From Eretmocerus hayati (Eukaryota; Arthropoda; Insecta; Hymenoptera; Aphelinidae): 64,000 nt of DNA. Of the stretch, positions 21,047-62,177 are shown piece by piece. Position numbers and translations under genes: made by a program. The notes beneath the pieces are model-generated. The model made no database searches, was not told the origin of the DNA, and saw only the letters and a list, made by a program, of their open reading frames with translations. The stretch is from the NCBI GenBank assembly GCA_029851415.1, contig CM056743.1:77270186-77334185 (forward strand), given 5' to 3'. The stretch's first letter is position 1; each line of letters starts with the position of its first letter.

Positions 21047-21629
21047 TGTCAGGAACCCATATAGGTTCCCAACTAGCCCTACATATTACTATAAATACTC
21101 TACACGCTCGCCACTGGATAAATATATCCCATGAGACCACCTGCATCTGCAGCTGCATCCGGCGCACGATCGTAAGTGGGACGCGATCTCGACCCTCCAA
21201 TCACAGCACAAGGACGCTACGATAGAAGACCCTGAATTGCACCAATCCTGGACATGCATCAGAGGGACGCTCGCCTACAGAAGGGTATAAATGGGGCCTC
21301 AAAAGCTCCGTCCAGTGCTTCTAGACGCGCACTCCAACGCGACACCACGCACCCTCCACAGGTGCTTCTAGAAACCCAGTAGAGCTCGTTTCACGATACA
21401 GCCATTTTGAGCCGAGCTTCCTCAGCCCTTGGGGAACTCGTCTCGTAGAATCATTTACGTATTGTACAGTCTCTCTCTCTCATTATTATACTTTGGATCT
21501 AATAAACCTAGCTTACATCAAACCCAGCATTTATTAAGACCACCGCCCATTTTCCACAAACCAATCTGGTTAGTCCTCGGACTTACCAGGCGCAGTACCA
21601 AAGAACCCACTTCGGGGAATCCCGTCACA
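21047..21629 (+). repeat. 5' LTR of the giant element (583 bp)
   Basis: Starts TGTCAGGAACCC and ends CCCGTCACA. Matches 58922-59506 throughout, with the only differences seen in a CT microsatellite near 21470 (2-bp length difference and adjacent bases). Contains TATAAAT at 21286, an initiator-like TCCAGT near 21311, and AATAAA at 21501. Confidence 0.92.
21286..21316 (+). promoter_or_regulatory. LTR promoter: TATA box and putative initiator
   Basis: TATAAAT at 21286-21292 followed about 25 nt later by TCCAGTGC, similar to the arthropod initiator. This would start the genomic RNA; the same module is present in the 3' LTR at 59161. R would then run from about 21314 to shortly after AATAAA 21501. 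Confidence 0.65.
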
Positions 21630-21632
21630 AAC

Positions 21633-21650
21633 TGGTGCTAGGTGTGGGGT
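21633..21650 (+). other. primer-binding site of the giant element
   Basis: Three bases after the LTR, TGGTGCTAGGTGTGGGGT begins with the TGG expected for pairing with a tRNA CCA end; its complement has the layout of a T-stem plus acceptor strand (CCCAC, seven acceptor bases, A, CCA). The tRNA species cannot be named without a tRNA set. Confidence 0.6.
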
Positions 21651-21815
21651 TTCTGCTGTGGAAAATTTGGGGAACAATTTGGGTTTCTGCTGTGGAAAAT
21701 TTGGGGAATAATTTGAGGTTCTGCTGTGGAAAATTTGGAGAACAATTTGGGTTTCTGCTGTGGGAAATCTAGGAAACAAACTGGCTTTTGCTGTCAAAAA
21801 TTTAAGAAACAAACT
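21646..21815 (+). repeat. leader tandem repeat, ~33-35 bp x 5
   Basis: A unit around TTTCTGCTGTGGAAAATTTG recurs at 21651, 21684, 21719, 21752 and, more diverged, 21785. It starts within the primer-binding site and lies in the untranslated leader, where packaging or dimerisation signals usually sit. Function is unknown. Confidence 0.75.
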
Positions 21816-21915
21816 ACTGCAGGGATTTTGAGAATTTTCGCGTCAACCGCGTCGCGCCCCCATTTTGGAGCTTCCCATCAGATATAACGATTGTCAGAAA
21901 GGAAGACAAGGAAGG

Positions 21916-21959
21916 ATGTCCATTGGAATTGCTTTTCTCTCCATCTACGCAGTATCTGG
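21916..21959 (+). CDS. leader exon encoding putative env signal peptide
   Basis: ATG at 21916 opens a 14-codon hydrophobic stretch (Ile, Ala, Phe, Leu, Tyr, Val rich) that ends at a strong donor, GG|GTAAGA at 21959/21960, leaving two bases over. The env acceptor at 55418/55419 needs exactly two bases to stay in frame. Errantiviruses are known to express env from a spliced subgenomic RNA, and the env ORF here lacks its own signal peptide. The join is inferred; the intron would span about 33.5 kb. Confidence 0.6.
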
Positions 21960-22290
21960 GTAAGAAAATTTTTTTTATTATCCCTATATACGTCCTTCGT
22001 GGGGAGAGTCGCGAGGCACAGACTCATTTTATTTTCGCCAGAAGTCAACTATCATTCACCCATTCATTGCAAAATTCAACTCACTTGCTGTGAATAATTC
22101 TAGAATACTATTCTCTCGACGCGATCTGAGATAACTCTATCAAGCAGAGAAGTATCTTCAATCTAAGATTCAATAAAAGTTTGTAACCATTTTTCCCCAT
22201 TCACTGAACTCTGCATTCTTGGCCCTACAAAACGAAAATTAGCTGCTCTACAGTTATTCAAATATACATCTCGATTACACATCTCAACCT

Positions 22291-25167: not shown

Positions 25168-28100
25168 AAAAGCAAAAATCGCCCCAGCGTCATGTCTCAA
25201 TCCGCCTTCTCGACTCGAACGGTCGTAGACACCCAATCGTCAAACTTAGTAGTGAACATTTCATGGATCGCGAATGTCGATTTTATGCTGATACTGGCGC
25301 GGATGTGACATTGTTAAAAGCGGGGTGCGTTTCAAAGGATGCAAAGATTGACAAAGATCACGTCATAGCGATAACGGGGGTAACCGCTGGGGAATGTTTT
25401 ACTCTCGGAAGATTGAAAATGGACCTAAATGGACTCGAATGTGAAGTTCACATAGTCCCGGATGATTTTGCAATTAATACAGAAGGGCTATTAGGATGGC
25501 AAGAATTCGAGAAGCATGGAGGGATCGTCGATGCCAAAGCAAAGTGTTTAAGGTTTGCAAATTTACAAATACCATTCGTGGAAGAAAAATTCACTATACC
25601 CCCTCGAACAAGGCAAATTATCTATGCACGAGTGAAGAATAATGCTAATGTAGGCTTTGTGGGTCTTCAAGACTTGGGCCCGGGGATTTTGTTCGGGAAT
25701 TTCATAGCAACTAATAATAAAGGAAAAGCTTACGCTGAATGTGTTAATACAAACGAAAAAGAGATCGAAATAGAACCCCCAGAGGTATTACTTGAAGAAT
25801 GCTATACAACAACAGAAGGTAAAGACATTTTTGACCTGAACGAGGAGGAAAATGAAATAAAAGCGTGGAAACGATCTCCGATATTAAGAGTGATGACGGA
25901 GGGAGTCAAAGACCGCGCTACCAGAATATTCGAAATGATTGATCCAAAAACATTGAAGGGGCTGAATGAAGAAGAAATTCAACACATAAAGGACCTTCTA
26001 AAAGAACGTCCACATGTTTTCGGGTTACCCGGGGAAAAATTGAAAGCTACGCATCTGGTTTCTCATAGAATAATTACTACTACCGACAAACCCATCAAAG
26101 CGAAACGCTATCGCATACCATTTGCTATCAAAAAGGAAATGGAGAAACAAGTTGATGAGTTACTCGAGGCAGGCATACTGAAACCTTCACAGTCACCCTA
26201 TTCAAGCCCTTTGTGGATAGTTCCTAAGAAACCAAGACCAAATGGAGAACCCAAGTGGCGGTTAGTGGCTGACTTCCGTCAGTTGAATGAAATCACGGTA
26301 GGCGACAACTACCCCTTACCGTATACGGTGGATATCATCGAAAACGTAGCTAAAGCTCGATATATCACGGCTATTGATTTAAAACAAGGCTTTTTCCAAG
26401 TGCCAATTTACCCTGGAGACACACATAAAACAGCAGTAGTCGCGGACACGAAATTAGTTGAGTTTACAAGGTCACCTATGGGTTTGAAAAACTCGCCATC
26501 GAATTTTATGAGGTTAATGCAATTAGCGCTAGCAGGAATGGTGGGGGTAGATCTGTGGCTGTATCTCGATGATATTATTATCGTGGCTGAGGATCTGGTT
26601 CAGCATTCTATTAGATTTAAAAGGCTCTTAAAGCGACTGGACGAAGCTAATTTAACAATCGAACCAAGCAAGTGCCAGTTTCTCCAAAGAGAAGCGAGTG
26701 TCTTAGGTTACATAGTAGGCAACGGAGAAATAAGACCCGATCCGAAGAAAATAGAGGTGGTAAGAAAATATCCTGTTCCAACAACAACGAAGAAAGTAAA
26801 ACAATTCTTAGGATTAGCATCGTATTACAGACGATTCATTAAAGGTTTCGCAGGGATAGCATATCCACTGAACTTGCTCCTGAGGGGCAACACAAAATTT
26901 TATTGGGGGGATGAACAGCAAAAATCTTTTGAAAAATTGAGGGATGCTTTATGTTCAGAGCCAGTTCTCAAAGCACCTGACCCAGAAGGCGATGAGTTCA
27001 TTTTGATCACGGATGCCAGCGAATTCTGTGTTTCTTCAATTCTGAGTCAAGGGAAACTAGGCCAAGAACACCCCTGTTCTTATTCCAGTCGATGCCTTCG
27101 AGCGAACGAATTGCGTTACAGCGTATACCTTAAGGAGTTAGCCGCCATCTGTCATGGTGTAGAACAAAATCGTTGCTTTTTATTTGGTAGAAAATTCACA
27201 GTGGTCACGGACCACGAACCACTGAAACACTTTCACACCACAAAGAAGCCTGATCTTAGGTTCCATCGTTTAAAAGCATCCCTTATAGGTTATGATTTCA
27301 CTATTCAGTATCGGCCTGGGAGTAAGAACGCCAACGCTGACGCATTGTCTAGGAATCCAGTCTTGGAAGAAGGGGATGAAAATCCAGAAAAATCGAAAGC
27401 GGAGCTATATCAACTAGCAGAAAAACAAGAGGCTGAAATTACGAATATCCCAATTGCTAAAGTATTTGTTGTGACAAGGAGTAAAAAGCGTAAGATAGAA
27501 GAATTAGAAGAGGATGGAGAAGAGGTCAGGATCAATTGGAAAAATCCGATTCAGAGAAGTTCAAGTTGTGATTATTCAACCGATCCATCAGTGAGTGACA
27601 GAAATGACAAGAATTGGAGTGGCACAGAGATGGCAGAACGACAAATCAATAGTCAAGCCTCTAAGGTTCAAAGGGGAGGACGCTTTCCTCCTTGGAACAT
27701 GCTGAAGGAAATAGATGACCATCCACACGCAGAAAAAATACTTAGCCAAGCAAGTAATGAAGCCTATATGTTACCCTATTTGACTGAAAAACGATTAGAG
27801 AAAATGGGCGCAGACATTCAAATAACAAGCACTCCCAAGAAAGATATTATCATCAAAAGACCCGAGAAGGAGCAACGACAGACTCTATCGAGAAAACACT
27901 CATACTTGTATGGGAACACGTTATATGATTCGTCCGAATCCGAGGACGACATCAACGAAGCATTGCAAACAAAATCGAAAACTGGGCAATCCACCAATGA
28001 GACCACCGATCCACTCAACAAGTGCATGGATAACCTTGATTCAACACAATACGCGGAACTCCCAGCCGAAACGACGCGTCAGATAGAATCAAGTCATGCC

Positions 28101-31061
28101 GTCGACGAAAGCACGACACCAATGGAAATAGATGAACTCACGATCAATGTAAGTGAAAGGATGGCTATACATCCATTGTCGTGGAAAGTGAAAGAATTTG
28201 AAACTCAAGGACAAGCTGGTGTCCAAATTTTAGTTTGGGGGAAGGGAAATGAACCAAAGAATGGTGGAAGCATAAGTAACGAAGGAGAGACAATTTTGAT
28301 CAATACAAAGGGTAGCAAATCAAAAAATGAGCTCAGAACGGAAGGAAATGACAAATTGAGTTCAGGAAGGGGCATAATAGAAGAATTTAAACGTGCAAAA
28401 TATCAACCGGTTGTCAATCTTACGCGATTGAAACCACCAGCAATAGATATTTTAGCAACCAATGGAAGTATTACTCGACAGCAGGCGATCGTTCCGGAAT
28501 CAAGAGAGCTCTCTCCAATCCTTGAAATGCAAGAAATAGGTACTGTAGACAATCGCACATGGCCAACAATTACTGCCAACAACGTAAACATGAGCACAAG
28601 TGTCCAATCCCCGGAAACAAATGCATCGAAATTTGGTGAAATGGGCGATGGAACGCCAACTTTTTCCAAATCACCGGAGGCTTCATTTCATAAAACGTTG
28701 GAAAATAGGAAAGATTCGGACGATCATATCTCAGCACAAGACCGAACCGGGAATTTTTCAGACAGTAATCCAGTAGCGAATCTGAGCGTAAGATTCCAGA
28801 ATTATGAAGAGCATGAACAGTGTGCTCAAGCGAATCATGTCCTTGAACAGTATTTAGATATTCCAGGAGACGGCAATTGTTTGTTCCATTCGTTGATAAA
28901 ACTAAAAAGTTGGGATGCAACTCCTCTCGATTTACGTAAATACTTGTTGAATAGCGAATATCTACCAGACTGCGCGGATCCACTAGCAGCCGTAGAGATT
29001 CTCACTTCAGAGAACAAATACGGCGACGTTGACACATTATATATATACTCACGGCAGTTTAATGAAAATATTTGCGTGCATTTACAATGCCAAGATAGAA
29101 TGAGATATGCTCACATAAAAGTTTCTAATCTCCCACAATTTTTACACCTCCACCTGCAAGGGCTACATTTTACCCCATATATTGATAGGGGGCCACGACC
29201 AGTTCAAGAATGTTTGATTGATAATTCTGTTCCATATGACACAGATGATGTCGAGATGCCACAAGTAGAGATTTCAATAAATCCAAACGATATCTCTCAG
29301 CAGCAGGAAGCTTTGAGTAATTTGTCGCAGCCACAGAATTCTTCATACCGAAATGGGGCTTTGGCAAACGCTGATGTAATTCAAGGAAATATGATACAGG
29401 GAAATGATATTGATAGACAGGACGAGGAGCGTGAGTCAGATATTGAAAATTTACCTCCGGAAATACCGCAAAATAAGGATAATGTAATGACTAGATATTT
29501 AGTAGCCGAAGCTCGAGGTCCACGAGAGATACCTGCGTGGGTAATAGACGAGGAAGAAATAGACGTATTCAGAGGGGTAAGATTAATAAACGATCACCCA
29601 TTTGCACATATCGATAATCTCGCTTACACGATTGCCGCGGATTTGCAGACTGAAACAGAAATCTTAAATGCACTGGTCGCGAGGAAATATGTGAGTCAAG
29701 ACGAACTTCTTAGCGCATCGCGATCCATAGGAGAAGTTGTGGTATCCGATTACAAAGACAAGAAAATATTTGGTATGGTTATCAAAAACACATCGTATTC
29801 AAAAGCTCTAAGACCCGATATTACATCAACTGTGAAAGTTCTCAAAGAATTACTCGTCTCTTTCGATATAAAATCATTGGGGATAATCAGGGATTTGGCG
29901 ATGCTTCATAAAAATGAATGGAATTATTTTGTCGAGCAATGCAATCGTATTTTTCGGAACGTTCCAATAGCCATTACTTTGTTTGAGAATAATTTACCTA
30001 TACCACCCACAGAGGAACGGGCACGAATTATCAAGGAGTATCACGAATCTTCAATAGGGGGACACAAAGGAATTGCCAAAACGTACGATAGAGTAGCGAG
30101 CGAATATTACTGGCCTAACATGCATGGCGATGTGAGAATTTTTGTAAGGTCCTGCCCGACTTGTCAAACAGATAAATTGACTCGCGTAAAAACTAGGCTA
30201 CCCATGGTTATAACAGATACACCAGTGATACCATTCGAAAAAATTTCAATGGATTTCGTGGGTCCTAAAACTCCTACAAAACGGGGAAACATTTATATCT
30301 TGACTATTCAGGATTGTTTCAGCAAATACTGCATTCTTACCCCAACGTCTGAAGCAACGACAGTCGTAGTTGCCAGAGTGCTCGTGGAAAAGTTCATAGC
30401 CTACTTCGGATTACCAGTATCAATACTCACCGACCAAGGAACACATTTTACAGGCAAAATTCTTGAAGAATTCGCAAGAATCTTCAGAATTAACAAGTTT
30501 ACTACATCATCGTTCCGCCCATCCTCGAACGGCTCGATTGAGCGCATGCATCATACGCTGAATGAATATTTGATAATGTACCTAAGAGATAATGAAGATT
30601 GGGATACGCTTTTACCTCTGGCTCAGCATTCGATAAATACCACAAAGCATGATATGCTAGGGTATTCTCCGCACCAAATTGTTTTCGGACGAAAAGCTCG
30701 TACACCATCCAGTTTTCCTCCTCGTGATCAGCTCATGACATATGATGAATATTTAGCAGACATAACAGAAGCCTACGCGCATCTCAGAACATTAGCTGCG
30801 ATGAATCTTCTTCAAGGAAAATTCCGATCTAAAAGATCATATGACCTCAAAATAAATTCCAAATTTTTCAGAGTAGGAGAGATGGTTTATTTAATTAAAG
30901 AACCTAGGCACGGAAAAACCGATAAACATTACGTAGGCCCTTGGGAAATTTTAGAAATTGATTATAACACGCATAATGCGAGAATAATAAAAGATGGAAC
31001 TGAACGTATAGTACACATAGATAAGTTGAAAAATCATCACGAAAATGAAGATGCTCAATAA
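25101..31061 (+). CDS. pol: Pol polyprotein: PR-RT-RNaseH-OTU-IN
   Basis: Replication polyprotein, open from 25101 and expected as a Gag-Pol frameshift fusion; residue numbers here count from the first ATG at 25263 (1932 aa). Protease has DTGAD at 10-14. RT has its catalytic YLDD at about 433. RNase H has TDAS near 581 and the end-of-domain NADALSR near 691. About 700-1190 is an unusual charged, disordered stretch. About 1190-1305 is an OTU-type cysteine protease: GDGNCLFHSL with Cys 1206, and a late QGLHFTPY His 1302. Integrase follows with an HHCC finger (H1594, CPTC), and D1664, D1724, E1760, i.e. DD(35)E, and a C-terminal YVGPWEIL GPY/F-like motif. All catalytic motifs seem intact. Gypsy Pol is usually about 1000-1200 residues; the extra length is the inserted region between RNase H and integrase. 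Confidence 0.9.
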   Translation, partial: SDKFFKLRGCSAPTRGAEHSQLEKQKSPQRHVSIRLLDSNGRRHPIVKLSSEHFMDRECRFYADTGADVTLLKAGCVSKDAKIDKDHVIAITGVTAGECFTLGRLKMDLNGLECEVHIVPDDFAINTEGLLGWQEFEKHGGIVDAKAKCLRFANLQIPFVEEKFTIPPRTRQIIYARVKNNANVGFVGLQDLGPGILFGNFIATNNKGKAYAECVNTNEKEIEIEPPEVLLEECYTTTEGKDIFDLNEEENEIKAWKRSPILRVMTEGVKDRATRIFEMIDPKTLKGLNEEEIQHIKDLLKERPHVFGLPGEKLKATHLVSHRIITTTDKPIKAKRYRIPFAIKKEMEKQVDELLEAGILKPSQSPYSSPLWIVPKKPRPNGEPKWRLVADFRQLNEITVGDNYPLPYTVDIIENVAKARYITAIDLKQGFFQVPIYPGDTHKTAVVADTKLVEFTRSPMGLKNSPSNFMRLMQLALAGMVGVDLWLYLDDIIIVAEDLVQHSIRFKRLLKRLDEANLTIEPSKCQFLQREASVLGYIVGNGEIRPDPKKIEVVRKYPVPTTTKKVKQFLGLASYYRRFIKGFAGIAYPLNLLLRGNTKFYWGDEQQKSFEKLRDALCSEPVLKAPDPEGDEFILITDASEFCVSSILSQGKLGQEHPCSYSSRCLRANELRYSVYLKELAAICHGVEQNRCFLFGRKFTVVTDHEPLKHFHTTKKPDLRFHRLKASLIGYDFTIQYRPGSKNANADALSRNPVLEEGDENPEKSKAELYQLAEKQEAEITNIPIAKVFVVTRSKKRKIEELEEDGEEVRINWKNPIQRSSSCDYSTDPSVSDRNDKNWSGTEMAERQINSQASKVQRGGRFPPWNMLKEIDDHPHAEKILSQASNEAYMLPYLTEKRLEKMGADIQITSTPKKDIIIKRPEKEQRQTLSRKHSYLYGNTLYDSSESEDDINEALQTKSKTGQSTNETTDPLNKCMDNLDSTQYAELPAETTRQIESSHAVDESTTPMEIDELTINVSERMAIHPLSWKVKEFETQGQAGVQILVWGKGNEPKNGGSISNEGETILINTKGSKSKNELRTEGNDKLSSGRGIIEEFKRAKYQPVVNLTRLKPPAIDILATNGSITRQQAIVPESRELSPILEMQEIGTVDNRTWPTITANNVNMSTSVQSPETNASKFGEMGDGTPTFSKSPEASFHKTLENRKDSDDHISAQDRTGNFSDSNPVANLSVRFQNYEEHEQCAQANHVLEQYLDIPGDGNCLFHSLIKLKSWDATPLDLRKYLLNSEYLPDCADPLAAVEILTSENKYGDVDTLYIYSRQFNENICVHLQCQDRMRYAHIKVSNLPQFLHLHLQGLHFTPYIDRGPRPVQECLIDNSVPYDTDDVEMPQVEISINPNDISQQQEALSNLSQPQNSSYRNGALANADVIQGNMIQGNDIDRQDEERESDIENLPPEIPQNKDNVMTRYLVAEARGPREIPAWVIDEEEIDVFRGVRLINDHPFAHIDNLAYTIAADLQTETEILNALVARKYVSQDELLSASRSIGEVVVSDYKDKKIFGMVIKNTSYSKALRPDITSTVKVLKELLVSFDIKSLGIIRDLAMLHKNEWNYFVEQCNRIFRNVPIAITLFENNLPIPPTEERARIIKEYHESSIGGHKGIAKTYDRVASEYYWPNMHGDVRIFVRSCPTCQTDKLTRVKTRLPMVITDTPVIPFEKISMDFVGPKTPTKRGNIYILTIQDCFSKYCILTPTSEATTVVVARVLVEKFIAYFGLPVSILTDQGTHFTGKILEEFARIFRINKFTTSSFRPSSNGSIERMHHTLNEYLIMYLRDNEDWDTLLPLAQHSINTTKHDMLGYSPHQIVFGRKARTPSSFPPRDQLMTYDEYLADITEAYAHLRTLAAMNLLQGKFRSKRSYDLKINSKFFRVGEMVYLIKEPRHGKTDKHYVGPWEILEIDYNTHNARIIKDGTERIVHIDKLKNHHENEDAQ
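25113..25156 (+). promoter_or_regulatory. -1 programmed ribosomal frameshift signal between gag and pol
   Basis: The heptamer T TTA AAC (25113-25119) is in the gag frame register required for -1 slippage. Eight nucleotides downstream a perfect 8-bp GC-rich hairpin forms between TGCTCGGC (25128-25135) and GCCGAGCA (25149-25156) with a 13-nt loop. The pol frame is -1 relative to gag and is open from 25101, so slippage at the heptamer fuses Gag to Pol before the gag stop at 25165. Confidence 0.85.
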
Positions 31062-31745: not shown

Positions 31746-33908
31746 CTAGCCTAATAGTAAAGCAGCAAGGACATCGCTAGGTGAAGAACCAGCTCGTGCA
31801 TTGATTCGAGCGCGTTCACGTGGTGACATTCTCGAAGGTCGGAAAAGGCACGTCATCGCGTGCTCATACCACTGCGGCGCAAGAATTTTGCGCAACCTAA
31901 ATAATCGTGGCGACATGGAAACGATACCTTTGTTCCGACTCTTTGAAGCAAATTATTTTCGCGGAAATCACAAACAAAGCAATAAGGACATTGACCGTTG
32001 CGCGCCTGACGGCAGCGATTACACAACGGATGCCCGTTGGAGCATAAGAAACATTGAGGATAAATCAGATCGTAACACACCTGGCAAGTAAAAATCTCAT
32101 TTATGGCATCTCGCGCGGACATCTCTTGAGAAGCAAGGACATTATTCTCCTCGGCGAGTTCCTCGTGGGAAAGCAAACGTTTCACGGCGGGCATCAAGCC
32201 ACGACGATCGCGAATGGCGCGCTCATCAGAATTGAGCCTAGTTTTAGCACGACGTATCAAGCGTTTAATTTCCACGACAGCGGGGGAGGAGTCCTCGCTA
32301 GTACTTGAAATCAGTTCATCGATATTGATTTCGTCTGACGATACCTCCTCCTCAGCTAACGGAGCAATAGGCTCTGGGGCGATGACAGGTTCTTGAGGAA
32401 TTACAGGTGGCATAGAAGCTGCTCCCTCGTTAGAGGAAGGCGGTTCAGACTCACGAACTGTAGAATCAGGCTCTGCAGGAGTGGCAACAGGTTGAGACCG
32501 CGCAGGCTCAACGCGAATGACGGATCCGGCCGATACAGCCCGTGCACGTGCCAAGTTGATTTCCGCAACGCGCTGGTAGAGATATTCTCGATCAGCACGA
32601 AACTGAGCAACGTTCATTCGCTGACGCTCACGCAAGCCAGGAAGTTCTCCTTCTATGTAGTCCAAAACATCGGTCAATGTAGTTCCAGGACAGGTGGTCA
32701 AGCTGTCAATGCACCCTAGGAATAAGCTAAGTCCCGACAAGGCAGGACATAAAACGGTGTGGTAAATCTCTCGGCCGGAAGTGTGTTCATAGAGATGGCG
32801 TTCCTCAAACGTGTCCTCGACAATACGCCTCGTTAAATTCATAATCGTGGCAATAACATCCCGTAGACGGCAAGGATCAGAGAGGGCGAAAATGGTGCGA
32901 CGCATCTGTTCATCGGTACGATTCTAAGGATTTTGGAAAGGAGGACACGGAGCGATCCGTATCGGAGGCGCCGTTTCCAGATAGTAAAGATGCTCAAGAG
33001 ATCGTGGATGTTGTGCCTGGAAAAGAGGAAAAATATTTTTGTAATACAGAATCATCGACATTTCCAACGCAATGAGAAAAGACCTACCATTATTAAAGCC
33101 AAGAAACTCTACGGTTGGCCACCGATTGAGGAAAAAGCGGTGACGCCACGGTCGTGAAATAGTCAGGAAAAGAAAATGCCGCATGAGCAAAAGTAGGGCA
33201 AAGAAGATCTGCATCAGATACATAGCCTGAATCGAGAGACGGGCCGTAGCAAGGTGAAATGGGAGTTGAAATAGGGAAATCTAACGCCTCCCCTTGAAAA
33301 CCAAGATATTCTTCACCCTGCATGGATAGAAATACATCAACTTCGGAGTTTAAAAATTCTTGTAAGTCACTGATAGGGGTGTTGGAATTTGTAACGGCTC
33401 GACTATTGAATGCTCCTGTCGCCAATGGATTATTACGAGGAGTGTTGCGAATTAAAACATCTCGCAGCAAAGAAGGCCTCATGCGGCCGCAGGTATTATT
33501 CAATAGCGACCATGGAGGGCGCCAATGCTGGAAAACCGGATAAGAGAGCCTAGTCAGCGACGCAAAATCACATGGGTAGATCGATAAAAATCATCTCACC
33601 TGTACAGATCGACGGGCATCACTCGTGGGGCGTCGAAGCACCACGATATTCTGCACGCAAGCGTCGCAATCGCAAGGCCCAACTTCCTCGAAATGACCCC
33701 TACGCCCAGAGATATGAATACAATCCCCAAGCTGAGCACCGCGTCCAACCGTTGTTGGTGGTGTATGAGGCCGAAAACTAACGGGTTGATGTCCAGACCG
33801 CAGGTTGTAAACGCCCCTTGACGAGTACGGATACACTCTGCTCCCGCGATTTGAGCGAGGAGGAACCCTGGGTCCCGAGGGAACATTATCCGGTGGGCGA
33901 CGGTCCAT
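31746..33908 (-). CDS. SIAH-type RING E3 ligase-like protein 1 (multi-exon, frameshifted 3' end)
   Basis: Antisense cargo gene. Exon with ATG 33908 runs to 33600 (donor CAG|GTGAGA), joins in phase 0 to 33527 (acceptor TTTTCCAG), and a later exon begins at 32923 (acceptor CCTTAG). The donor between about 33100 and 33140 is not settled. The N-terminus is Arg/Pro-rich, then disordered acidic/Pro-rich. The C-terminus has a SIAH-like RING (FTCQVCYDLIYP, CSNGHPLCNRC, CPYC) followed by the start of the SIAH zinc finger (FPCRHDYLGC). The frame closes at 31853, but a +1 change near 31870-31900 restores the expected WYEHAMTCLFRP ending and stays open to 31746, parallel to the second copy. SIAH proteins ubiquitinate targets for proteasomal decay. 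A spliced upstream leader exon is likely (acceptor 33924, donor GTAAGT near 33982). Confidence 0.7.
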
Positions 33909-33981
33909 GATAGCTGCAATGAATCTGAAATTAGGATTCGGAAGCGCTCGAATTCAGAGATATTCCAACGAGAATACTTAC

Positions 33982-37658: not shown

Positions 37659-37704
37659 CTGATAACACGAAATGAATGAGGATTGCGAGTAAATTTTCCA
37701 AGAC

Positions 37705-49918: not shown

Positions 49919-51072
49919 TTAGGGGTGGCGAAAGCCATTAGCAACGCGAAAGAAGAGGGCTATAAGTTCTTCCACCGTTTCGCATAGGCTACTCGCTTCA
50001 GCAAAATGAGCTTCGAACTCAGACGGTTGCAACGTTATATATCCTTGACGAAGCGCAGTAGACAAAAACCAACGCATGTCTGCTTCAATTTCAGCTCGAG
50101 CTGAATCCTGTAAGAAAGGAAAGAAAACAAATAAGCTCCAAATCGAAACTTCCTCAAACCGGAAAGCTAACCGCCCTACATTGAGCCTCGAAATCAAAAC
50201 ATCTGTAAAACACTGTAGTCAAAGCGCTCAGGGGTTCTCATCTTGGACAAATGACACATCGACCGGCATCACGCTATAGCAGCATGGCGTTCATACAATT
50301 CATATTAGGTTTACTCGGACGTTACAAGAACTCATTCAAATTTGGGGTAAAAATTGAGATAATCCCAAACACCTCAGCTTCTTGAACAACACCTTTATCT
50401 AATGGAATTATGTTTGCACAAATCAAATCTCATTCACATTCACATTTTCATTGATAGCTCTGGTCACATTACAATCGAAAGTACATTACTATTTGCAGAA
50501 AAATCGAACCATGAACTCTTGGACAAACTGACTAATATCTCTATCAATTACCAGAAGGTCTCCAATCGAATTGAACGAAAACCCCATGCGGTATAGGCGT
50601 GGCACAATATTATAATGAAAAAGGCACGATCAGCTAGATGGAAATTTTAGCCTCTCAGGTTCATATTTCATCTAAGACGGACACGAAAAAAAATTTATTC
50701 ACTCAAGCCTCAAAATTACAACTGTACGCAGCCAAATTATACATATATCTCGCAAATCCTGAATTAAAATTCTGCCAAAGTGTAGTAGAAAACGAAAGAC
50801 GACTCACTTGTTCGGGTTCCATAGGGAGAGCGTCGTCTTCAACAGGTTCGGGAGGCCCGAGCAGCGCTCCTCGCATGAGAGCATCGAAGTCTGCATCGCG
50901 AGCATCATTAACGTAATCAAAGAAATCAGGCTGGTGTTCACCCACATCCAAATCAATATCCTCGAAAATATCGATTAAATCAAGGCTTTCGGAGGCAGAA
51001 TCAGATTCATCCGTCTCCTGGGGGACGTCGATATTGTTATCACCCGGCAATTCCGGAGTAACAAAGTATAAG
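49919..51072 (-). CDS. unrecognised acidic antisense cargo gene (at least two exons)
   Basis: Exon 51072-50808 (acceptor GTTAACAG, donor CAA|GTGAGT) encodes a very acidic stretch (ESDSASESLDLIDIFEDIDL). It joins in phase 0 to the terminal exon 50107-49919 (strong acceptor TTTCTTACAG), which encodes 62 residues with a helical, Glu/Phe-rich sequence ending at TAA. An earlier exon probably lies near 51160-51270 (LVKFIVNHAFYSF) with donor choice uncertain. No domain recognised. The acidic profile suits a nuclear or transcription-related protein, but that is only suggestive. Confidence 0.5.
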
Positions 51073-51798
51073 CTGTTAACACAAAAGTAACATGAATAAG
51101 ATCTCACACATTTCATTGCGTTCAATAAAAATCCAAAAGAACGACTCACAAAAGAATAGAAAGCATGGTTAACTATGAACTTCACGAGAAGATGTCCAAG
51201 GGCATACTGACGGTTCTGGAGAATAGTGCTGTTGGCCAGATTGAAATACCAGAACACATGGACCAATCTATTAGACCATACTAAAGAGAAAAAACTCGGG
51301 GCAAATCCAATAGATAAGAGGATAGATGCTCTACTAAGCGTATGAAGATCAGGCGTCTACTTGCTTCACACCGGGACGCGTAACTCTAGCAATAGCCCTC
51401 GCAGTACCGAAATGGGCTGAAGATTTTTTTTATATAGTGCGAGGATCCTATAGGCAAGCTTTTGAAAGCTAATTGAGACGTTGTGTTATAACCCATCTCA
51501 GAGTCTCTTTTAAAAGGAAACTATACACATACTTTTCACGGTAAAATATTCTAGATTTGTATCAACAATTTATAGCCTCTCAACAAATTTTCAATCACAA
51601 TGTAAACTTTTCTCCCAAATGAGCAATCAAGGAAGACATACTGCGGATGAAAAACCAAATTACGTGCATCGCAAAATTAATCAAGAAAATCAGCTAAGGA
51701 AAATTGTAAAATCGTAGAAAAGTTTTGGGTTTCCGCAATAAAATTACTAACTAAACGTACACGGAATATTCTGTATTGAAGATATTGAGGATAAACAA

Positions 51799-52395
51799 CT
51801 ATCGGCACCAATAATCGTCTTCCTTCATAGCCGACCTAGAGATAGAAAATTTTTATTATCATCAATATCGAAAGAACATGTGTCGAATTCACCATCTTCA
51901 GAATGATAATACTTACAAACACCTTGCGCAGAGCGTAGAGAAATCGTTGTTTGTAAAAGGTCCAGTTGATTCGCAATGTAAACAAACTGTGCTTGCTCCA
52001 ACGGGACAGTCATCAGGTGATGAATGATGTTTAAAGTACTCAATTAGTCCATAGAGGTTCGAGATACGATCGCGGATCCATCTCTCCATACCATTTATTT
52101 CGCTGACAAGGGGTAAGATGGCTTTCTCGTAAGCTATCTGATACTCATACAGGGCAATGATTAAAGAATTTTCTAGCTCGACGTTCGCAGGATTTATAAT
52201 TTCTGGTCGTAGCCTCTGCGAGCGACGTTGGTGGCTCCTCTGCAATCGCTTTGGAAGCTGCACTCGTCGTAACGTTACAACAGGAAGATTTCTAAACGCA
52301 TCAAGGCAGTGCTGATTTTTGTATTGTGAAACTCGATTACGATCCGGATGAACAGAAAGTAGGGCATTAAGGTTTGCAAAAACGTGCGGAGACAT
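51799..52395 (-). CDS. Cys-rich antisense cargo protein, paralogue A (two exons)
   Basis: Exon 1 from ATG 52395 to a GTAAGT donor at about 51917; it ends inside a zinc-ribbon-like motif, CLHCESTGP then LCARC. Two leftover bases join the short terminal exon 51835-51799, which adds 13 codons. About 172 residues: Arg/Gln-rich centre, then helical region, then the CxxC pairs. The neighbouring gene 52890-54634 ends in the same way (CPNC, FCKSC, same splice phase, tiny last exon), so the two are paralogues. Function unknown; CxxC-x(n)-CxxC suggests metal binding. Confidence 0.6.
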
Positions 52396-52889: not shown

Positions 52890-54634
52890 TCAGTGAAGGT
52901 CTCTCTGACTATCCATCTTAGAGCTGTAATTTTGTATAAAAAAAAAAAAAAATTTTTTTTATCACTCGCAAACATTCAATCAAAAATTTGGTTCTTTCCA
53001 TATTTGAAGCTCTACTTACATACAACTTTTGCAGAACCCGTACATATGATCCATCAACTTCCGTTGAACTGTCCAACAATTGGGGCAGCGGCTTGCATGG
53101 GTTTCTGGCCTCTTTTCACCACCATATTTCAGATCATATTGTCGGTCGACAATTAGTTGATGGAGGCGAGCCATTCGCTCGTCGCGCTCGAGACACCGAG
53201 TCCTGCGCCGGGTATCCATGACTCGCAGCCCTGCGATTGACAACTGAAGTTGACGAATGACAGGATCACTGTCTAAATCGGAATCCTCTGGTTCTTCCAT
53301 ATGGAGAGAAAGTCTTCTCTTCTTACAAGACAACAATTTCTCTGACGTATCAACAATATCTCTACCAGCAAGTGGACTATGAAAACGTCGATAATTGTCG
53401 GAATAATGAGTTCAGAAGTAATGCTTAACCCTTCCTTATCAAGTGTAGAATCTACCTCGAGGGTTATGGACGTTTTTCTCTCGGCATCATCAGAGCACTG
53501 TTCTGCTCTGGGGTCTGGTACATCGATCAACGAGGCAGCAGCTCTCGCAGTTCTGCCCCGTGTTTGAATAGGCTCACTGCGAGTTTGCAAGAGGGGTTTC
53601 TTCAATTTTCGCTCGGACTGCGGGCCTGTCTTACGTTTTCCTAAATCTGGACTGTATGCACTATTTTTCATCGGCTGTTTTTTCGACTTTTTGCGAAGTC
53701 TACCACCTCGTTTAGGCGAAGGAAACAAATGTTTATTTAATTGATTATACTTGGAGACGCTAATTCGCTTTTGTCTCACAAGCACAGGAAGCAACGGCCT
53801 CTCATCAGCAGTTATAGTCACACTGTTAAGGTGATTCATTGATGATACCTCACTCTTTCGATTTACATCGGGAAGCGACTCGCTGTCAACCTCAAGAACA
53901 ATTTCTTCCATAAGAGATGGTGGTCTGATGAATACCTTATCATAAATATCCATTTCCGAGTCATCAGCAAGTAAAGGATCGAACTCTTCACTATCTTGTA
54001 AATCACTAGTGGTGACGGTAGGAACGTCCGCCCCCACGCCGGAATCAGATCCAATGCGGCTTGCAAGGGTAGCTACTACACGGTCATCAATGTTCTCGAG
54101 GCATTCGGTCAGTCCTGTACTATGGCTTGTAGAAGAAACGGACGCATCTTGGTTCACAGCCATACTATCACAAGAAATTTCATTGCTACACACATCACGC
54201 ACAGCCTCCTCTTTGAATCTCACCTTACGCTGACGAAATGTCTGAAGTCCGCTCGTTGACGGTACAGCACCGTCAGGTTGCACAAAATCCAAAGGATCCG
54301 AAAACCCTGGTATTTTGACGGCTGGTGACAAACTTGTAACATTTGTAATGATAGGCCCTTGAGACCCGGACTCATTCAAATCTTCATGTTCATTTAGATC
54401 AGTGTCGTGCTGACACATAACTTCGTGCACCCTTTCGTAATGGGCAAATCTACAAGGCCCACTTTCATCATCGTCATCATCGGAAGTGACATAACAATAT
54501 TTGTCGAAATCATAGTCTTCGTCACCGGGACCAGAATGTCTATTATCACTGCCGGTCTCATAATCTTCTTCTCCGTGCTCCAAATAATCATAATCGCCCA
54601 CTTCACAATCGTCACTTTCACGAGCAAAACTCAT
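52890..54634 (-). CDS. Cys-rich antisense cargo protein, paralogue B, long acidic/basic N-terminus
   Basis: Starts at ATG 54634 with a strongly acidic Asp/Glu/Tyr region, then Ser-rich and a basic block (KRGGRLRKKSKKQPMKN) that could be a nuclear localisation signal. Near 53400 the frame changes: a 53-nt intron (donor GG|GTTAAG, acceptor TTTTCATAG) would keep it in frame; a frameshift is the alternative. The next part ends in CPNCWTVQRKLMDHMYGFCKSC at a GTAAGT donor (about 53018), and the last exon 52923-52890 adds about a dozen residues. About 530 residues. Same Cys-pair ending and splice phase as paralogue A. No enzymatic motif seen. Confidence 0.6.
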
Positions 54635-54717
54635 TATGTAAACGTTTTTATGAGGGTGTAAGGGGAAGAAAAATCTACTTCACCAAACCGAGGTAAACAC
54701 GAAACTGCAGACGAGAA

Positions 54718-54724
54718 TTATATA
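54718..54724 (-). promoter_or_regulatory. TATA box for antisense paralogue B
   Basis: Minus-strand TATATAA lies 84-90 nt upstream of ATG 54634, with an initiator-like TGCAGTTTCG about 25 nt downstream of it. This suggests the cargo gene has its own promoter and does not depend on the LTR. Confidence 0.5.
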
Positions 54725-54734
54725 GCTTGCCAGT

Positions 54735-55418
54735 GAAACCAAAAACAGCAGTCTCAAGAGCTCAGATTGACCATAAGGGGCACGCGATAGTTCAAAGTAC
54801 GAGAGAGGGAGGTAAGATGGGTAACGTTTATCAAAATAAAACCGGCGGAATGATCAATCAACAAATCCAGTGCCAACAAGCGTCTGTCTGTCAAGTGCAA
54901 ACTCAAGAAGCAAGTAAAAGCGATGAAATGGCGCTTGACTGATGTCTCGCGATAAGTATACGGCGACGCGCACGAGTCACTCAGCGCCGACACGTCAAGT
55001 GCTCCACACAAGAACCACCATTCAGTGCAGAATTAGGCTTCTTAACAACTTGTCAGGCTAACCAGGTGGTCACCAGATCATCCCAGGCGATACACTTTCT
55101 TATTCAATGCGCGGGAGGAGATACCGCAACAGAGCTACCCTTTTAGAAACCAATACGAAGTCGAGGTTATCTATCGCTTCACACATAAAATTTAAGGCTC
55201 ATTAATTAAGAGGCAGAATGGACACATGGCACACATGGAACACGCACAGCCGAATATATGTGAAATTTCTTATCTGCGCGAGATCATCAGAAATATCAAA
55301 ATCGTAGTAAATAAACATCGAATATTTATCAATATCAGTGGTCGAACCAGAGCATAGCCGACAGAACTCTCCTCACCGGGGATCATAAAATTACTGTCTG
55401 AATTTAATTTTATTGCAG
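54735..55418. other. intergenic region before env, no gene recognised
   Basis: Short frames on both strands but none with motifs. Ends in a polypyrimidine-type tract and acceptor TTTTATTGCAG (55408-55418) feeding env. Confidence 0.4.
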
Positions 55419-57372
55419 AACTCCAGAATTTCCAAAAGATCGAATGGATTTGCGACCTATCAAACACAATCCGGGCTTGATTATGGAAAAACTAGAGCAA
55501 CTGCACACATCTCGAGTAGTGTGGAAAATTGTGAACGAAGTCAACCTTCAGCCATATTTTTCTCAAGGAATGAATCTATACGATACTTGGAATGTGATAA
55601 AACAAAGTTGCGATGAACGGGGTGAAGAATGTAAGAGCAAGGATCAGATTGACAGATTAGGAGAACGAATTCGCGACACACAAAAGAATGCGAATAGACT
55701 GCTAGAACTACTACAAGGAACAGACCCAGATATGCCCCATATGCGAGTTGAGAGGGCACTTTTAAACATCATGGGAAAATTTTACAAATATTTATACGGA
55801 CAACTGGATGAGGATAACGAAATTGAATTGAAAGAGTTGATACAATCAGCATCTAATGACACAAGTCAGCTAGCGGGTCTCTTAGCCAATCAATCAGAAA
55901 TCATTTATAACCAGTTTGGTCTTCAACAAGATAAAATTGACAGATTGAATTCCGTCATACCTAAACTGAAACTCGAAAATGAAAAATTAAGTGACCGTCT
56001 TGATTTCTCTATAGTAATGGAAATTCTCATAGAAAGCGTGCTACAATACGAAATTACAACGGAACAGCTCACAGAATCTATTCTTTTTGGTGTGCAAGGT
56101 ATATTACACCCACGATTCGTCCCACCTTCGATCCTGAAAAATACAAGGAATACAGTGATGGGGACTGTCACTGACGCCAAGTTTCCAGAAATTGGAGAGA
56201 ATGAGCCTCTTCTAGAGCTCTTAAAGATTGCGGATCTGTCTATTATGTTTAGCTACCCAAAACTATTATACTACGTACGACTACCACTACTCGATCGTAT
56301 AGATTTCGATCTCTACAAGGCTTTACCTGTACCGGTACGACAACTTAACACTTCAGTTTTCGCTTACATTTGGCCAGACGCCGTATATACTGCAATCAAT
56401 GTGGAGGCTGGAGTTTATGTGCCTTTCAGCGCAGAAGCTCTTAGCTTGTGCAAGAGATTGAAGAAAACATACATTTGCGAGGGTTCTACTCCGGTACACA
56501 AAATTAGTAATACGTCACCTTGCGAAGTCAAATTTGTTGCGCAAAGATTTATAAAAGATCTGTCTAATTGTGAAATGAAATTAGCTAGAATACAAGAAAC
56601 CTTCTGGGCAAAATTGGAGAAAGAGAACACTTGGGTATACTCCACGAATAGGGCAGACACAATATTTGAATCTTGCGGGAAACAGGTAGACAAGGAAGTA
56701 AATATAAAGGGTATTGGAATAGTTCACTTACCTTCAGGTTGCTCAGCTCGCACAGAGAATGTAAGACTCACAGCATCTCGGAAAATTACAGTAACCTCGG
56801 AAGTATTTGTCTTCAATGATAGAACCCTAGATTTGTCACACTTACTGAACAACGAACTCAAACAAATGTCTGACGATCCAATCAAAAGCGCGGATGTAAC
56901 TCCGAGTATACAACTACACGGAGACGCTCCGCTCAAATCATTAGAGAAAGGAGACGATCTGAAAGATATCATAAACAAAGCTCGGAGCATGAGCCAGCTC
57001 AAGTTCATTTCAAAAAGATTCGAAAGCCTCCAAAATTCATTTAGTATCATGGAATATTCATTTCTATTCGCCATCATGGCATTTATCTTCGCAGCAAGAG
57101 TCTGTTGCCTGGGGGGGTGCCCTTGTTTCACTGTTCGAAGACTTGTTTCAGGTTTTATCCCACACCGTAGAAGACGGGAGCAAGTATTGGAATATGGGAG
57201 GAATGATGTCATTACCTTGCATACAATCGAACGACGAGTTCAACCTCATGTTACAGAAAATTCCCCAAACATTATTGTTGAGGCTACTGCCATAGGCAAT
57301 CCAGAAAATCAACCAACAATGTCATCCCAAGATTTGGAAGGAAACATGGAAATCCCGGGGACATATGTATGA
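55419..57372 (+). CDS. env: Env: baculovirus F/errantivirus-type fusion glycoprotein
   Basis: Membrane fusion protein of the retroelement, expected at the particle surface. The ORF proper begins at ATG 55444 (642 aa); the frame is open back to a splice acceptor at 55418, and a leader exon (21916-21959) would supply the signal peptide that is missing here. Features counted from ATG 55444: conserved NPGL near the N-terminus (residues 9-12); minimal furin-type site RVER at 101-104 followed by a hydrophobic fusion-peptide-like segment (105-122); a long helical region after it; a Cys-containing ectodomain; transmembrane segment about 538-560; a Cys-rich juxtamembrane turn; and an approximately 80-residue cytoplasmic tail. 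Length fits the family. No internal stops, so the gene looks intact. It lies in the usual place upstream of the 3' LTR, but separated from pol by the cargo. Confidence 0.85.
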
Positions 57373-58921
57373 AGGATGTAATTCGCAGTGTTTGGGAAAT
57401 TTCCACAAATCATTCAGCAGAGTGATGGAATATAAACGTCAGGACCATGAAGTTTTTCATAAATCAACAGCCCAGTTGACCAGCAGGAATACATGATGAA
57501 GATTGCAACCATAACCAAACAATGACTCATTCTTGAAAATGATATGAACAATCAATTTTTAGGAACAAGAGAGAGAGACCTAGGTAGACCTGTATTGATA
57601 GGGTAGTATTACACTAGTTATTCATGATCTTAACCACGATTTGTGAATTTTCCATTATCACACTGTAACTATTATCTAAGGTACAGTAATCTCAATAGTT
57701 CATATGAAAACGAGCTACTTTTCTGGTCATACCAAACAGAACCAAATTCATTCTAAATTATTTGCGTTAATGATAAGATTTTAAGCTCAATCCAGTATCG
57801 TACAATTTTGAGTAGTTTTGGTTTCCTCTCTTCTCTTTTTTTTTTTTCTCATACTCACTCATCCAAAAATTATTCAAGAAAATGATTAGGACTGTTGACC
57901 GCTCGAGCAATCTCCAACCTAGCCTATCATAATTTAAACTCCCAAAAACTGTATAAAAATTTGAAAAAAAAAGAAGAAGAAAAATTAGCTCAAATTACTC
58001 TTAACTGTTAGACCTTAGATTGCATACCGTAGTTAATTCAGCTTATCACAATGCTATTCAAAATTTTTTCACAAAATTCACACATATCAAAAAAAAAGAG
58101 AGCTTAACTTCGATATTAAAACTTATATTGTATACCGTAGACAATTTAGTTCATCATAATATCAAGCTCCGACGGAGTTCAGATTCTTCCGTTAAGTGTA
58201 AGCAACCTAGAATTAAGTCATAGTATCAGTATTCCTAACATTTGCCTTGGGTTACCTAGCTAATAGTACATCAAACGGAAGTTGATTCTCTTTCTCTAGT
58301 AAAATACAACACGTTTTTACTCTTTAATATTAAAATTCACACCTTCTCTTATTGCTTCATAAATAACCTAGCTCATTATGAAACAAAGAGGAAATTTTCT
58401 ATTTCAAGAAAAAAAGAGGTCACATTTTCAATAGTTGAACGCTGGAATCAGCACATCTCTCCTCATTGTTGAGATTTTAATTTCTAGAGTACTTAGAATT
58501 CATAATTATTGTAACCAAAATAGAATCTACGTCATTTGAAAATTCACCTAGTTAACAATATGTTCCTCATCCTATCTTATGAATAACTCAGATTCTTCCA
58601 AATATGTATCAATTTCAATCATTGTAATGTTATTGTAGATTCACTAGACCTATTTTTATCATCAATAATCTCCTAGCTTTAGTCAGTATATTTTCTATCA
58701 ATTATCGAGACGAGGCTCATAGTATTACGCAGCTAAAGCATACTCAATACCTTTATCAGTTCATGCCATTTAGTTTGTCAACTACAAGTAGGAATTTTCA
58801 TGTAAAATGTTGATTAGAATACGCGGACAATGGAAATTGTATGGAAAAACAAAAAAAAAATATATTTTTTTTACGATATCCTTGGGATTGCTCAGGAGAG
58901 CAATGAATGCGGCTATGGACG
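57373..58921 (+). other. 3' untranslated region of the giant element; no typical polypurine tract
   Basis: AT-rich, with short repeats such as the ATTGTATACCGTAG-like words (58018 and 58127). No gene recognised. The bases directly before the 3' LTR read ATGCGGCTATGGACG, not a purine run, although plus-strand priming normally needs one. Confidence 0.5.
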
Positions 58922-59506
58922 TGTCAGGAACCCATATAGGTTCCCAACTAGCCCTACATATTACTATAAATACTCTACACGCTCGCCACTGGATAAATAT
59001 ATCCCATGAGACCACCTGCATCTGCAGCTGCATCCGGCGCACGATCGTAAGTGGGACGCGATCTCGACCCTCCAATCACAGCACAAGGACGCTACGATAG
59101 AAGACCCTGAATTGCACCAATCCTGGACATGCATCAGAGGGACGCTCGCCTACAGAAGGGTATAAATGGGGCCTCAAAAGCTCCGTCCAGTGCTTCTAGA
59201 CGCGCACTCCAACGCGACACCACGCACCCTCCACAGGTGCTTCTAGAAACCCAGTAGAGCTCGTTTCACGATACAGCCATTTTGAGCCGAGCTTCCTCAG
59301 CCCTTGGGGAACTCGTCTCGTAGAATCATTTACGTATTGTACAGTGTCTCTCTCTCTTATTATTATACTTTGGATCTAATAAACCTAGCTTACATCAAAC
59401 CCAGCATTTATTAAGACCACCGCCCATTTTCCACAAACCAATCTGGTTAGTCCTCGGACTTACCAGGCGCAGTACCAAAGAACCCACTTCGGGGAATCCC
59501 GTCACA
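58922..59506 (+). repeat. 3' LTR of the giant element (585 bp)
   Basis: Near-identical to 21047-21629; starts TGTCAGGAACCC, ends CCCGTCACA. AATAAA at 59378 would serve for polyadenylation of the genomic and env RNAs. Confidence 0.92.

Positions 59507-62137: not shown

Positions 62138-62177
<40 letters not shown>

What the first reader, a model, noticed from the sequence alone, without database searches (positions are those of the whole stretch)
21047..59506. A 38.5-kb LTR retroelement with its own cargo genes
Seen: two LTRs (583/585 bp) with TGT...ACA ends, both flanked by GTAG, and gag-pol at the 5' side plus an F-type env at the 3' side. Known: errantivirus-type elements are roughly 7-9 kb. 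Inferred: the whole interval integrated as one unit carrying about 24 kb of extra genes, a provirus larger than any ordinary retrovirus genome.
Basis: partly seen in the sequence, partly recalled or inferred. Interest (0 to 1): 0.97.

Follow-up and report, generated by a model that had tools for sequence, protein, structure and literature searches.

The report
Giant wasp retrovirus with chromatin genes
A whitefly-killing wasp's genome carries retrovirus-like elements, three of them measured end to end at 38-40 thousand bases, about four times the usual size, whose extra genes run backwards between the replication and envelope genes, recur in the same order in a distant relative of the element, and likely help it escape the host's silencing machinery.

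Summary
A 38,460-bp LTR element (21047-59506, TSD GTAG/GTAG, 1 substitution in 583 aligned LTR bases) carries gag, pol, a 24-kb cassette of antisense genes and a baculovirus-F-type env in Eretmocerus hayati. It is not one freak insertion. A second copy (39.1 kb, TSD CAAG) has the cargo at the same place, and eight more loci hold parts of it in order. A deeply diverged second family (40,186 bp, TSD GTGA, LTRs 640/640 identical; pol 46-77%, env 60%, RINGs 43-44%, JmjC 27% amino-acid identity) has the same gene order. Genome-wide, 36 of 39 RING loci near an env, and 13 of 15 JmjC-env pairs, show this arrangement (about 0.2 expected). Two integrated cDNAs of spliced env RNA use a GT-AG junction whose intron in the window is 33.5 kb and spans gag, pol and the cassette, so LTR transcription likely runs through all of it. 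The cassette encodes two Sina-type RING proteins and a KDM4-like JmjC protein that keeps the Fe(II) triad. Best reading: a lineage of giant errantivirus-like endogenous retroviruses whose conserved accessory cassette likely opposes heterochromatin silencing. The architecture is shown; the function is inferred. Expression, packaging and infectivity are untested.

The parts
21047..21629 (+). 5' LTR, TGT...ACA, preceded by GTAG
21633..21650 (+). putative primer binding site (starts TGG, three bases after the LTR); primer tRNA not identified
   Evidence: sequence read; assignment inferred
21647..21803 (+). 34-bp tandem repeat (4.6 copies) in the leader
21956..21965 (+). splice donor of env RNA (exon ends 21959, then GTAAG)
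   Evidence: junction seen in integrated cDNA copies L009 and L011
22291..25167 (+). gag, 958 aa, CCHC knuckle (Pfam E 0.011, below its cut-off)
25263..31061 (+). pol, 1932 aa: RT, RNase H, integrase, with about 900 extra residues between RNase H and integrase
   Evidence: insert also in family 2
28833..29198 (+). OTU-like motif (GNCLF ... GLHFTP) inside the pol insert; recalled motif, Pfam and AF2 did not confirm
31853..32905 (-). cargo RING1: Sina_RING protein, 350 aa
   Evidence: (E 2e-7), ligands, homolog in family 2 at 44%
33594..33953 (-). small cargo ORF; part of it is the last exon of gene model P0005
35257..36750 (-). cargo RING2: Sina_RING protein, 497 aa
   Evidence: (E 3.3e-12)
37368..37661 (-). 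optional exon of the antisense gene (model P0007)
39683..41353 (-). cargo JmjC + C2H2 main exon, KDM4-like, Fe(II) triad HxE...H kept
41428..41854 (-). 5' exons of the JmjC gene (41702-41854, 41428-41601) with GT-AG sites
50703..51266 (-). cargo ORF, 187 aa, no family
51913..52395 (-). cargo ORF c51, 160 aa, weak homolog in family 2 (35% over 52 aa)
53273..54634 (-). cargo ORF c53, 453 aa, no family
55410..55418 (+). splice acceptor of env RNA (TTGCAG, env exon from 55419)
55444..57372 (+). env, baculovirus-F type, 642 aa
58922..59506 (+). 3' LTR, followed by GTAG

Best explanation
This is one member of a lineage of giant (38-40 kb) errantivirus-like endogenous retroviruses whose pol-env interval holds a conserved antisense gene cassette, with genes for two predicted RING proteins and a KDM4-like JmjC protein, that likely helps the element escape host silencing. 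Shown: LTRs and 4-bp target-site duplications enclose gag, pol, cassette and env as one unit; further copies and a deeply diverged family keep the same order; env RNA has been spliced and reverse transcribed with a junction whose intron in the window is 33.5 kb and includes the cassette. Inferred: the 5' LTR drives a full-length RNA of about 38 kb that is packaged and copied by the element's own enzymes; the cassette is read from its own antisense promoter(s) as spliced mRNAs; the JmjC protein would remove repressive histone methylation (such as H3K9me3) laid down by piRNA or other silencing, and the RING proteins, perhaps with an OTU-like domain in pol, would redirect host ubiquitination, for example to degrade silencing factors.
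For: Unit: TSDs and LTR identity in the window, in copy 2 (C2:62372136-62411269, CAAG/CAAG, 6 substitutions of 581) and in family 2 (C1:96233964-96274149, GTGA/GTGA, 0 of 640). The window's two LTRs differ by 1 in 583 while cargo and env DNA differs 2-6% from copy 2, as expected of reverse transcription rather than segmental duplication. Conservation: family 2 keeps gag, pol, RING1, RING2, JmjC, c51, env in order. RING versus env 36 of 39 in the arrangement, JmjC versus env 13 of 15, RING versus JmjC 32 of 33, random means 0.16-0.18. Splicing: two cDNA copies share donor 21959 and acceptor 55418. Cargo function: JmjC Fe triad invariant in 8 of 8 aligned proteins, 4 of them of the window's own family; best PDB sequence matches to its JmjC part and best fold matches are KDM4 enzymes; RING zinc-ligand pattern kept in both RINGs of both families; JmjC nonsynonymous/synonymous per-site ratio 0.47 at singleton changes, pairwise dN/dS 0.36-0.73. 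Antisense expression: a 3.6-kb LTR copy (L010, TSD CGAG) holds cargo 54037-51826 in mRNA sense between a PBS and the 3' end, with short shared sequence at the junctions.
Against: No RNA, protein or particle was examined. RING2 shows little constraint among recent copies (singleton ratio 0.88), and stops or frame-shifting gaps occur in JmjC in 6 of 6 copies and in RING2 in 4 of 5, although decay after insertion is expected. The few JmjC changes shared between copies show less constraint (0.74; 6 and 15 changes). Annotated gene models that run from the JmjC exon into the RING2 exon end or splice away before the RING finger. The JmjC protein lacks a recognised JmjN domain (only PF02373 is listed for its gene models), so its substrate is open. 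The spliced env cDNAs could descend from cargo-free relatives, since my pol searches for such copies did not complete. The OTU-like domain failed Pfam and gave a useless model. No ORF of 120 aa or more is listed between 41,251 and 50,703.
Confidence: 0.72

Rival explanations
1. Composite: an ordinary errantivirus into which another mobile element or a host segment was inserted once, or an assembly join of two elements.
For: Known errantiviruses are far smaller (recalled); the cassette is antisense and includes host-like genes; the window is repeat-rich.
Against: Unlinked copies carry the same interval, the two whose flanks were compared with different TSDs; a second family with 60-69% protein identity in env and the RT part of pol has homologous cargo in the same order; 36 of 39 RING-env pairs fit. 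The edges of the cassette were not searched for terminal repeats of an inserted element.
Confidence: 0.05
2. Same giant element, but the cassette serves another role: for example keeping out competing elements, controlling the element's own transcription from the antisense strand, or manipulating the wasp or its whitefly host.
For: RING and JmjC proteins have many substrates (recalled); antisense genes exist in retroviruses (HBZ of HTLV-1) and in plant Retand elements, where a regulatory role is suggested (PMC11963269, passages).
Against: None direct. The KDM4-like catalytic core fits removal of silencing marks best, but no substrate was tested.
Confidence: 0.25
3. Moved passively: defective giant derivatives of a smaller autonomous errantivirus, mobilised in trans.
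For: Large non-autonomous LTR derivatives exist (PMC6431247, passages); env-only cDNA copies without gag and pol must have been mobilised in trans here.
Against: The window copy has open gag, pol and env and so, read piece by piece, has the C1 copy of family 2; cargo and retroviral genes have diverged together.
Confidence: 0.08

Closest known systems
Errantiviruses / insect endogenous retroviruses (gypsy, ZAM)
   Same: gag-pol-env, F-type env, 4-bp TSD, env from a spliced subgenomic RNA whose donor lies upstream of gag (ZAM and Beagle subclades, PMC12992720, passages)
   Different: about four times longer (usual length recalled); 24-kb antisense cassette between pol and env; about 900-aa insert in pol; intron of 33.5 kb
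Burro giant Gypsy elements of planarians (PMC6431247, passages)
   Same: giant Gypsy-like LTR elements, over 30 kb in total, with env homology and ubiquitin- or apoptosis-related domains including a RING-type one
   Different: Burro domains sit mostly in one sense polyprotein with env between gag and pol; here separate antisense genes between pol and env, with JmjC
Plant Retand / Grande LTR elements (PMC11963269, passages)
   Same: antisense ORFs downstream of pol conserved across families
   Different: 2.9-6.6 kb pol-LTR region, TRP28 domain, no env; here 24 kb before an env
Polintons/Mavericks (PMC6431247, passages) and Teratorn (search listings)
   Same: giant virus-like mobile elements
   Different: DNA transposon, herpesvirus or PolB based; not LTR retroelements
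KDM4/JMJD2 histone demethylases
   Same: JmjC fold match and HxE...H Fe(II) triad
   Different: no recognised JmjN; followed by C2H2 fingers and, in gene models, by part of the RING2 exon

Membership tests
Errantivirus (insect ERV, Ty3/gypsy) | LTR element with gag, pol and env in that order | tested here: met
   (RT, RNase H, integrase, F-type env; protease only by weak matches)
Errantivirus (insect ERV, Ty3/gypsy) | env homologous to baculovirus F | tested here: met
   PF12259 E 8.7e-41; family 2 E 1.6e-37
Errantivirus (insect ERV, Ty3/gypsy) | 4-bp target-site duplication | tested here: met
   7 of 7 insertions whose two outer flanks I saw, one of them a solo LTR
Errantivirus (insect ERV, Ty3/gypsy) | env expressed from spliced subgenomic RNA | tested here: met
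   two integrated cDNAs with GT-AG junction; not seen as RNA
Errantivirus (insect ERV, Ty3/gypsy) | RT falls in the errantivirus clade of a tree | not tested
   no reference RT set was fetched
Errantivirus (insect ERV, Ty3/gypsy) | typical length of roughly 7-9 kb (recalled; typical, not defining) | tested here: not met
   38,460 bp here, 40,186 bp in family 2
Burro giant Gypsy | env and accessory domains in-frame in one sense polyprotein | tested here: not met
   accessory genes antisense, env a separate 3' ORF
Retand | antisense TRP28 ORF (PF04195) between pol and 3' LTR | tested here: not met
   no PF04195 in any cargo ORF scanned
KDM4 demethylase | JmjC domain with HxE...H | tested here: met
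   which residues bind Fe(II) is recalled
KDM4 demethylase | JmjN domain | tested here: not met
   precomputed Pfam of the JmjC gene models lists PF02373 only
OTU cysteine protease | recognisable OTU domain with D/C/H triad | tested here: inconclusive
   motif kept in two families, D replaced by E in family 2; Pfam none; AF2 mean pLDDT 39.9

The most novel reading that the evidence does not exclude
A radiation of giant retroviruses: 38-40-kb RNA genomes, the largest known to be reverse transcribed, that have evolved a DNA-virus-like host-takeover cassette. It includes their own histone demethylase and a pair of ubiquitin ligases, expressed from the opposite strand, to undo piRNA-guided heterochromatin, and these viruses were active in this wasp until very recently.
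Probability: 0.45. Interest if true: 0.97.

Novelty: new variant of a known kind. Interest (0 to 1): 0.93.

Why it matters
Limits on LTR retroelement length have traditionally been put around 10 kb, from transcription, RT processivity and packaging (PMC6431247, passages). Here 38-40-kb units with near-identical LTRs and open gag, pol and env (window and family 2) show that an env-bearing element can exceed this about fourfold. A cassette conserved across families makes an arms-race idea testable: that an endogenous retrovirus encodes its own chromatin eraser and ubiquitin ligases against piRNA silencing. It may also bear on the recent Gypsy burst reported for this wasp, which has the largest genome among the chalcidoids compared there (PMC13116730, passages).

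Tried and rejected
Assembly artefact or a single odd insertion: rejected by multi-copy recurrence and family 2. Virus origin of the JmjC gene: the one viral-contig scan gave 17 pattern matches and no relative. Homologs of the pol insert (residues 700-1580): none among the 7982 best candidates. Homologs of the JmjC protein: with the window's protein, 5 of 6 hits were E. hayati and one was a zinc-finger match in Anolis; with the two-family alignment, 3 of 4 were E. hayati and one an unnamed ENA protein on a 1,686-bp contig. Single-sequence AF2 of the OTU-like piece was useless. A bacterial promoter scan of the LTR was uninformative. Rfam found nothing at gathering thresholds in the window. Troyka elements were considered and dropped (3-bp TSD, CG...CG ends; PMC12440569 outline and abstract).

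A pre-chosen test on 20 JmjC loci could be run on only 10 of them, with one 3-kb stretch each (plus one overlapping 3-kb stretch of the first locus). In 2 of the 10 a clear gag or gag-pol match lay there, and in 1 a weak integrase match on the strand not expected. Only one (C1:91.784 Mb, gag 45%) fitted the arrangement. At C2:130.03 Mb gag-pol lies on the same strand as JmjC and is a different Gypsy (pol 32%). The other 7 had nothing. The 9 kb following the fitting gag held no pol. The stretches were too narrow for the varied spacing, so I turned to coordinate co-localisation, which is the stronger test. Its exceptions are told: RING-env 3 of 39, JmjC-env 2 of 15 and RING-JmjC 1 of 33 in other configurations. 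Copies within a family are not independent, and the searches scored only the best candidates (env 69 of 1268, RING 85 of 224, JmjC 83 of 218). Of the 74 JmjC loci, 61 have no scored env within 40 kb in the arrangement; the whole P0011 group (about ten loci at 81-100%) is among those. Of the 82 RING loci, 26 have neither env nor JmjC in the arrangement.

Dropped before counts: comparisons with fewer than 60 codons (RING1 and the 33.6-kb ORF had none, as the fetched stretches did not cover them); nearby matches on one strand were merged into loci.
Full report
What it is. The window is Eretmocerus hayati chromosome C3, 77270186-77334185: the four large contig lengths equal those of E. hayati records, and the genome size (692.1 Mb) and scaffold N50 match PMC10482854 (passages). 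The element spans 21047-59506 (38,460 bp). Its LTRs differ by 1 substitution in 583 aligned bases and a 2-base gap, and GTAG flanks both ends. Inside are gag, a 1932-aa pol, a 24.4-kb interval and a baculovirus-F-type env.

The cargo. The four longest cargo frames are antisense to gag-pol-env and longer than any in 200 block shuffles. Two encode Sina-type RING proteins (Pfam E 2e-7 and 3.3e-12), one a JmjC protein with C2H2 fingers (E 2.5e-12), and one has no family. The best PDB matches to the JmjC part are KDM4 enzymes. An AlphaFold model built from 8 sequences is weak overall (mean pLDDT 47.8; best blocks of the core 60-86), but its best Foldseek matches are KDM4D/KDM4A (probability 1.00, E about 2e-8, TM-score about 0.4). 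The Fe(II) ligands H, E and H (recalled from KDM4) are invariant in 8 of 8 aligned proteins; four of these belong to the window's family, and the others are 26-30% identical to the window's. NCBI gene models of E. hayati (P0003-P0007) map to the window as minus-strand exons between 41854 and about 33.7 kb. Four of the five (P0003, P0004, P0005, P0007) join the JmjC main exon to the RING2 exon, but all four end or splice away before its RING finger. The window keeps GT and AG within three bases of the mapped exon borders checked. Whether those models have RNA support I do not know.

It is a multi-copy mobile family. Searching four cargo pieces separately finds at least two of the four at nine further loci in the window's order, at 89-98% identity: C2:62.37-62.41, C1:77.00-77.01, C1:124.85-124.91, C3:78.15-78.18, C3:99.00-99.05, C3:99.63-99.67, C3:107.40-107.41, C4:77.46-77.50 and C4:79.59-79.63 Mb; most are broken up by insertions or deletions. 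More diverged matches (74-91%) lie at C2:74.96-75.00, C3:93.71-93.72 and C1:75.35-75.39 Mb. The C2:62.37-62.41 copy has all four pieces, the start of gag, env and both LTRs over 39.1 kb, with its own TSD CAAG and 6 substitutions in 581 LTR bases. Its pol was not aligned, but the space between its 5' LTR and cargo (9.4 kb) equals the window's. In the window and in family 2 the two LTRs are more alike than the interiors of different copies, which is the signature of reverse transcription rather than segmental duplication.

The architecture is old. The env DNA search led to a second family. At C1:96233964-96274149 it is 40,186 bp long with identical 640-bp LTRs and TSD GTGA, and carries, in order, gag (46% aa identity), pol (46-77% by segment, with the same insert), antisense RING1 (44%), RING2 (43%), JmjC (27%), c51 (35% over 52 aa), a 560-aa ORF and env (60%). 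The 560-aa ORF stands where c53 stands in the window but shows no significant similarity to it (E 0.07). Another family-2 locus on C3 (150.61-150.65 Mb) has the same order. So the cargo has diverged together with the retroviral genes.

It is widespread in this genome. Protein searches gave 74 JmjC loci (from 84 matches), 69 env loci (70 matches) and 82 RING loci (86 matches). Of 39 RING loci with an env within 40 kb, 36 have it on their 5' side in antisense orientation, against a mean of 0.17 (maximum 3) in 2000 random placements. Of 33 RING loci near a JmjC locus, 32 have it on the same strand and the 5' side (mean 0.18, maximum 2). Of 15 JmjC-env pairs, 13 fit (mean 0.16, maximum 3). Thirty-eight of the 69 env loci carry an antisense RING or JmjC in this arrangement, down to about 45% env identity. 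Limits: copies of one family are not independent, only the best candidates were scored, and gag-pol on the far side was seen directly only in the window and the two family-2 loci.

How it likely works. Shown: two insertions, L009 (C1:110342019-110347022, TSD CTAA) and L011 (C4:60514641-60519577, TSD CTAT), consist of LTR, leader, env and LTR, with a junction exactly at 21959|GTAAG and TTGCAG|55419. They are integrated cDNAs of spliced env RNA. [quoted passage not shown] Inferred: in this element the intron is 33.5 kb and contains gag, pol and the cassette, so LTR transcription runs through everything. An older cargo-free ancestor could have given the same cDNA; the close match of L009 to the window (LTR 98.6-99%, env region 96%) argues for a recent giant parent but does not prove it. 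A third derivative, L010 (C4:17920518-17924104, TSD CGAG), holds LTR and PBS, then cargo 54037-51826 in mRNA sense, then the element's last bases and LTR, with short, imperfect shared sequence at both joins. The simplest reading is that reverse transcription switched onto an antisense cargo mRNA and back, the classical route of gene capture; an inversion at DNA level is not excluded.

Function. Among recent copies the JmjC frame shows 76 nonsynonymous and 48 synonymous singleton changes over 1288 and 380 sites (ratio 0.47), with pairwise dN/dS 0.36-0.73 in 6 comparisons. RING2 is weaker (singleton ratio 0.88; shared changes 0.37 on small counts; pairwise 0.51-0.74 in 5). For JmjC the few shared changes run the other way (0.74; 6 synonymous, 15 nonsynonymous). 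Stops or frame-shifting gaps occur in JmjC in 6 of 6 copies and in RING2 in 4 of 5. RING1 was not compared among copies. Constraint is better seen across families: catalytic and zinc ligands survive at 27-44% identity. I therefore read the cassette as working genes. The most economical role is opposing heterochromatin: a KDM4-like eraser would remove H3K9 methylation on the provirus, and RING ligases would remove or redirect silencing factors. This is inference (I put it at about 0.4 on its own); the giant-unit claim itself I hold at about 0.95.

Comparison and novelty. The closest kinds are errantiviruses (same plan, about a quarter the size), planarian Burro elements (giant, but with sense polyproteins) and plant Retand elements (antisense ORFs, far smaller, no env). 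My ten literature searches (several lists were capped, for example 25 of 40 and 12 of 154) listed no paper whose title or abstract start describes a giant env-bearing LTR element with an antisense RING/JmjC cassette. PMC13116730 (passages) reports a recent Gypsy burst in this wasp without this structure in the passages seen. Chary and Hayashi 2025 on metazoan errantiviruses, cited in PMC13172572 (passages), did not turn up as a held paper and I have not read it, so prior notice there cannot be excluded.

Noticed in passing
39536-39546: Five other copies have about 323-325 bp at this point that the window copy lacks; an 11-bp overlap of the matches suggests a short repeat at the join.
   Followed up: no
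L010 (C4:17920518-17924104): LTR element with TSD CGAG carrying only the antisense cargo segment 54037-51826 in sense orientation, plus a 166-bp stretch absent from the window.
   Followed up: partly
L008 (C4:40657580-40658160): Solo LTR of the family flanked by ATAA on both sides.
   Followed up: no
L033-L042, such as C3:86663044 (P0011 group): About ten JmjC loci at 81-100% identity to P0011 with no scored env in the usual arrangement; possibly another carrier or a host-domesticated group.
   Followed up: partly
P0012: Related JmjC protein (33% to family 2) on a 1,686-bp ENA contig of unnamed origin: possible relative of the cassette outside this genome.
   Followed up: no
C4:79617723 and C4:79628733: JmjC and env on the same strand, against the usual arrangement; probably a nested fragment of another family.
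   Followed up: no
61188-62524: Minisatellite with a 200-bp unit, 6.5 copies, just outside the element.
   Followed up: no
7806-9233: About 640-bp inverted repeat (93% identity) with short spacer.
   Followed up: no
15587-17233: DDE_1 / Tc5-type transposase ORF of 548 aa; also a DUF1759 ORF (1689-2510) and an RVT_1 ORF (9342-11549): repeat-rich flank.
   Followed up: no
C1:91784065-91786736: gag at 45% to the window's on the expected strand near an antisense JmjC locus, but no pol in the next 9 kb: a likely third, broken family.
   Followed up: partly
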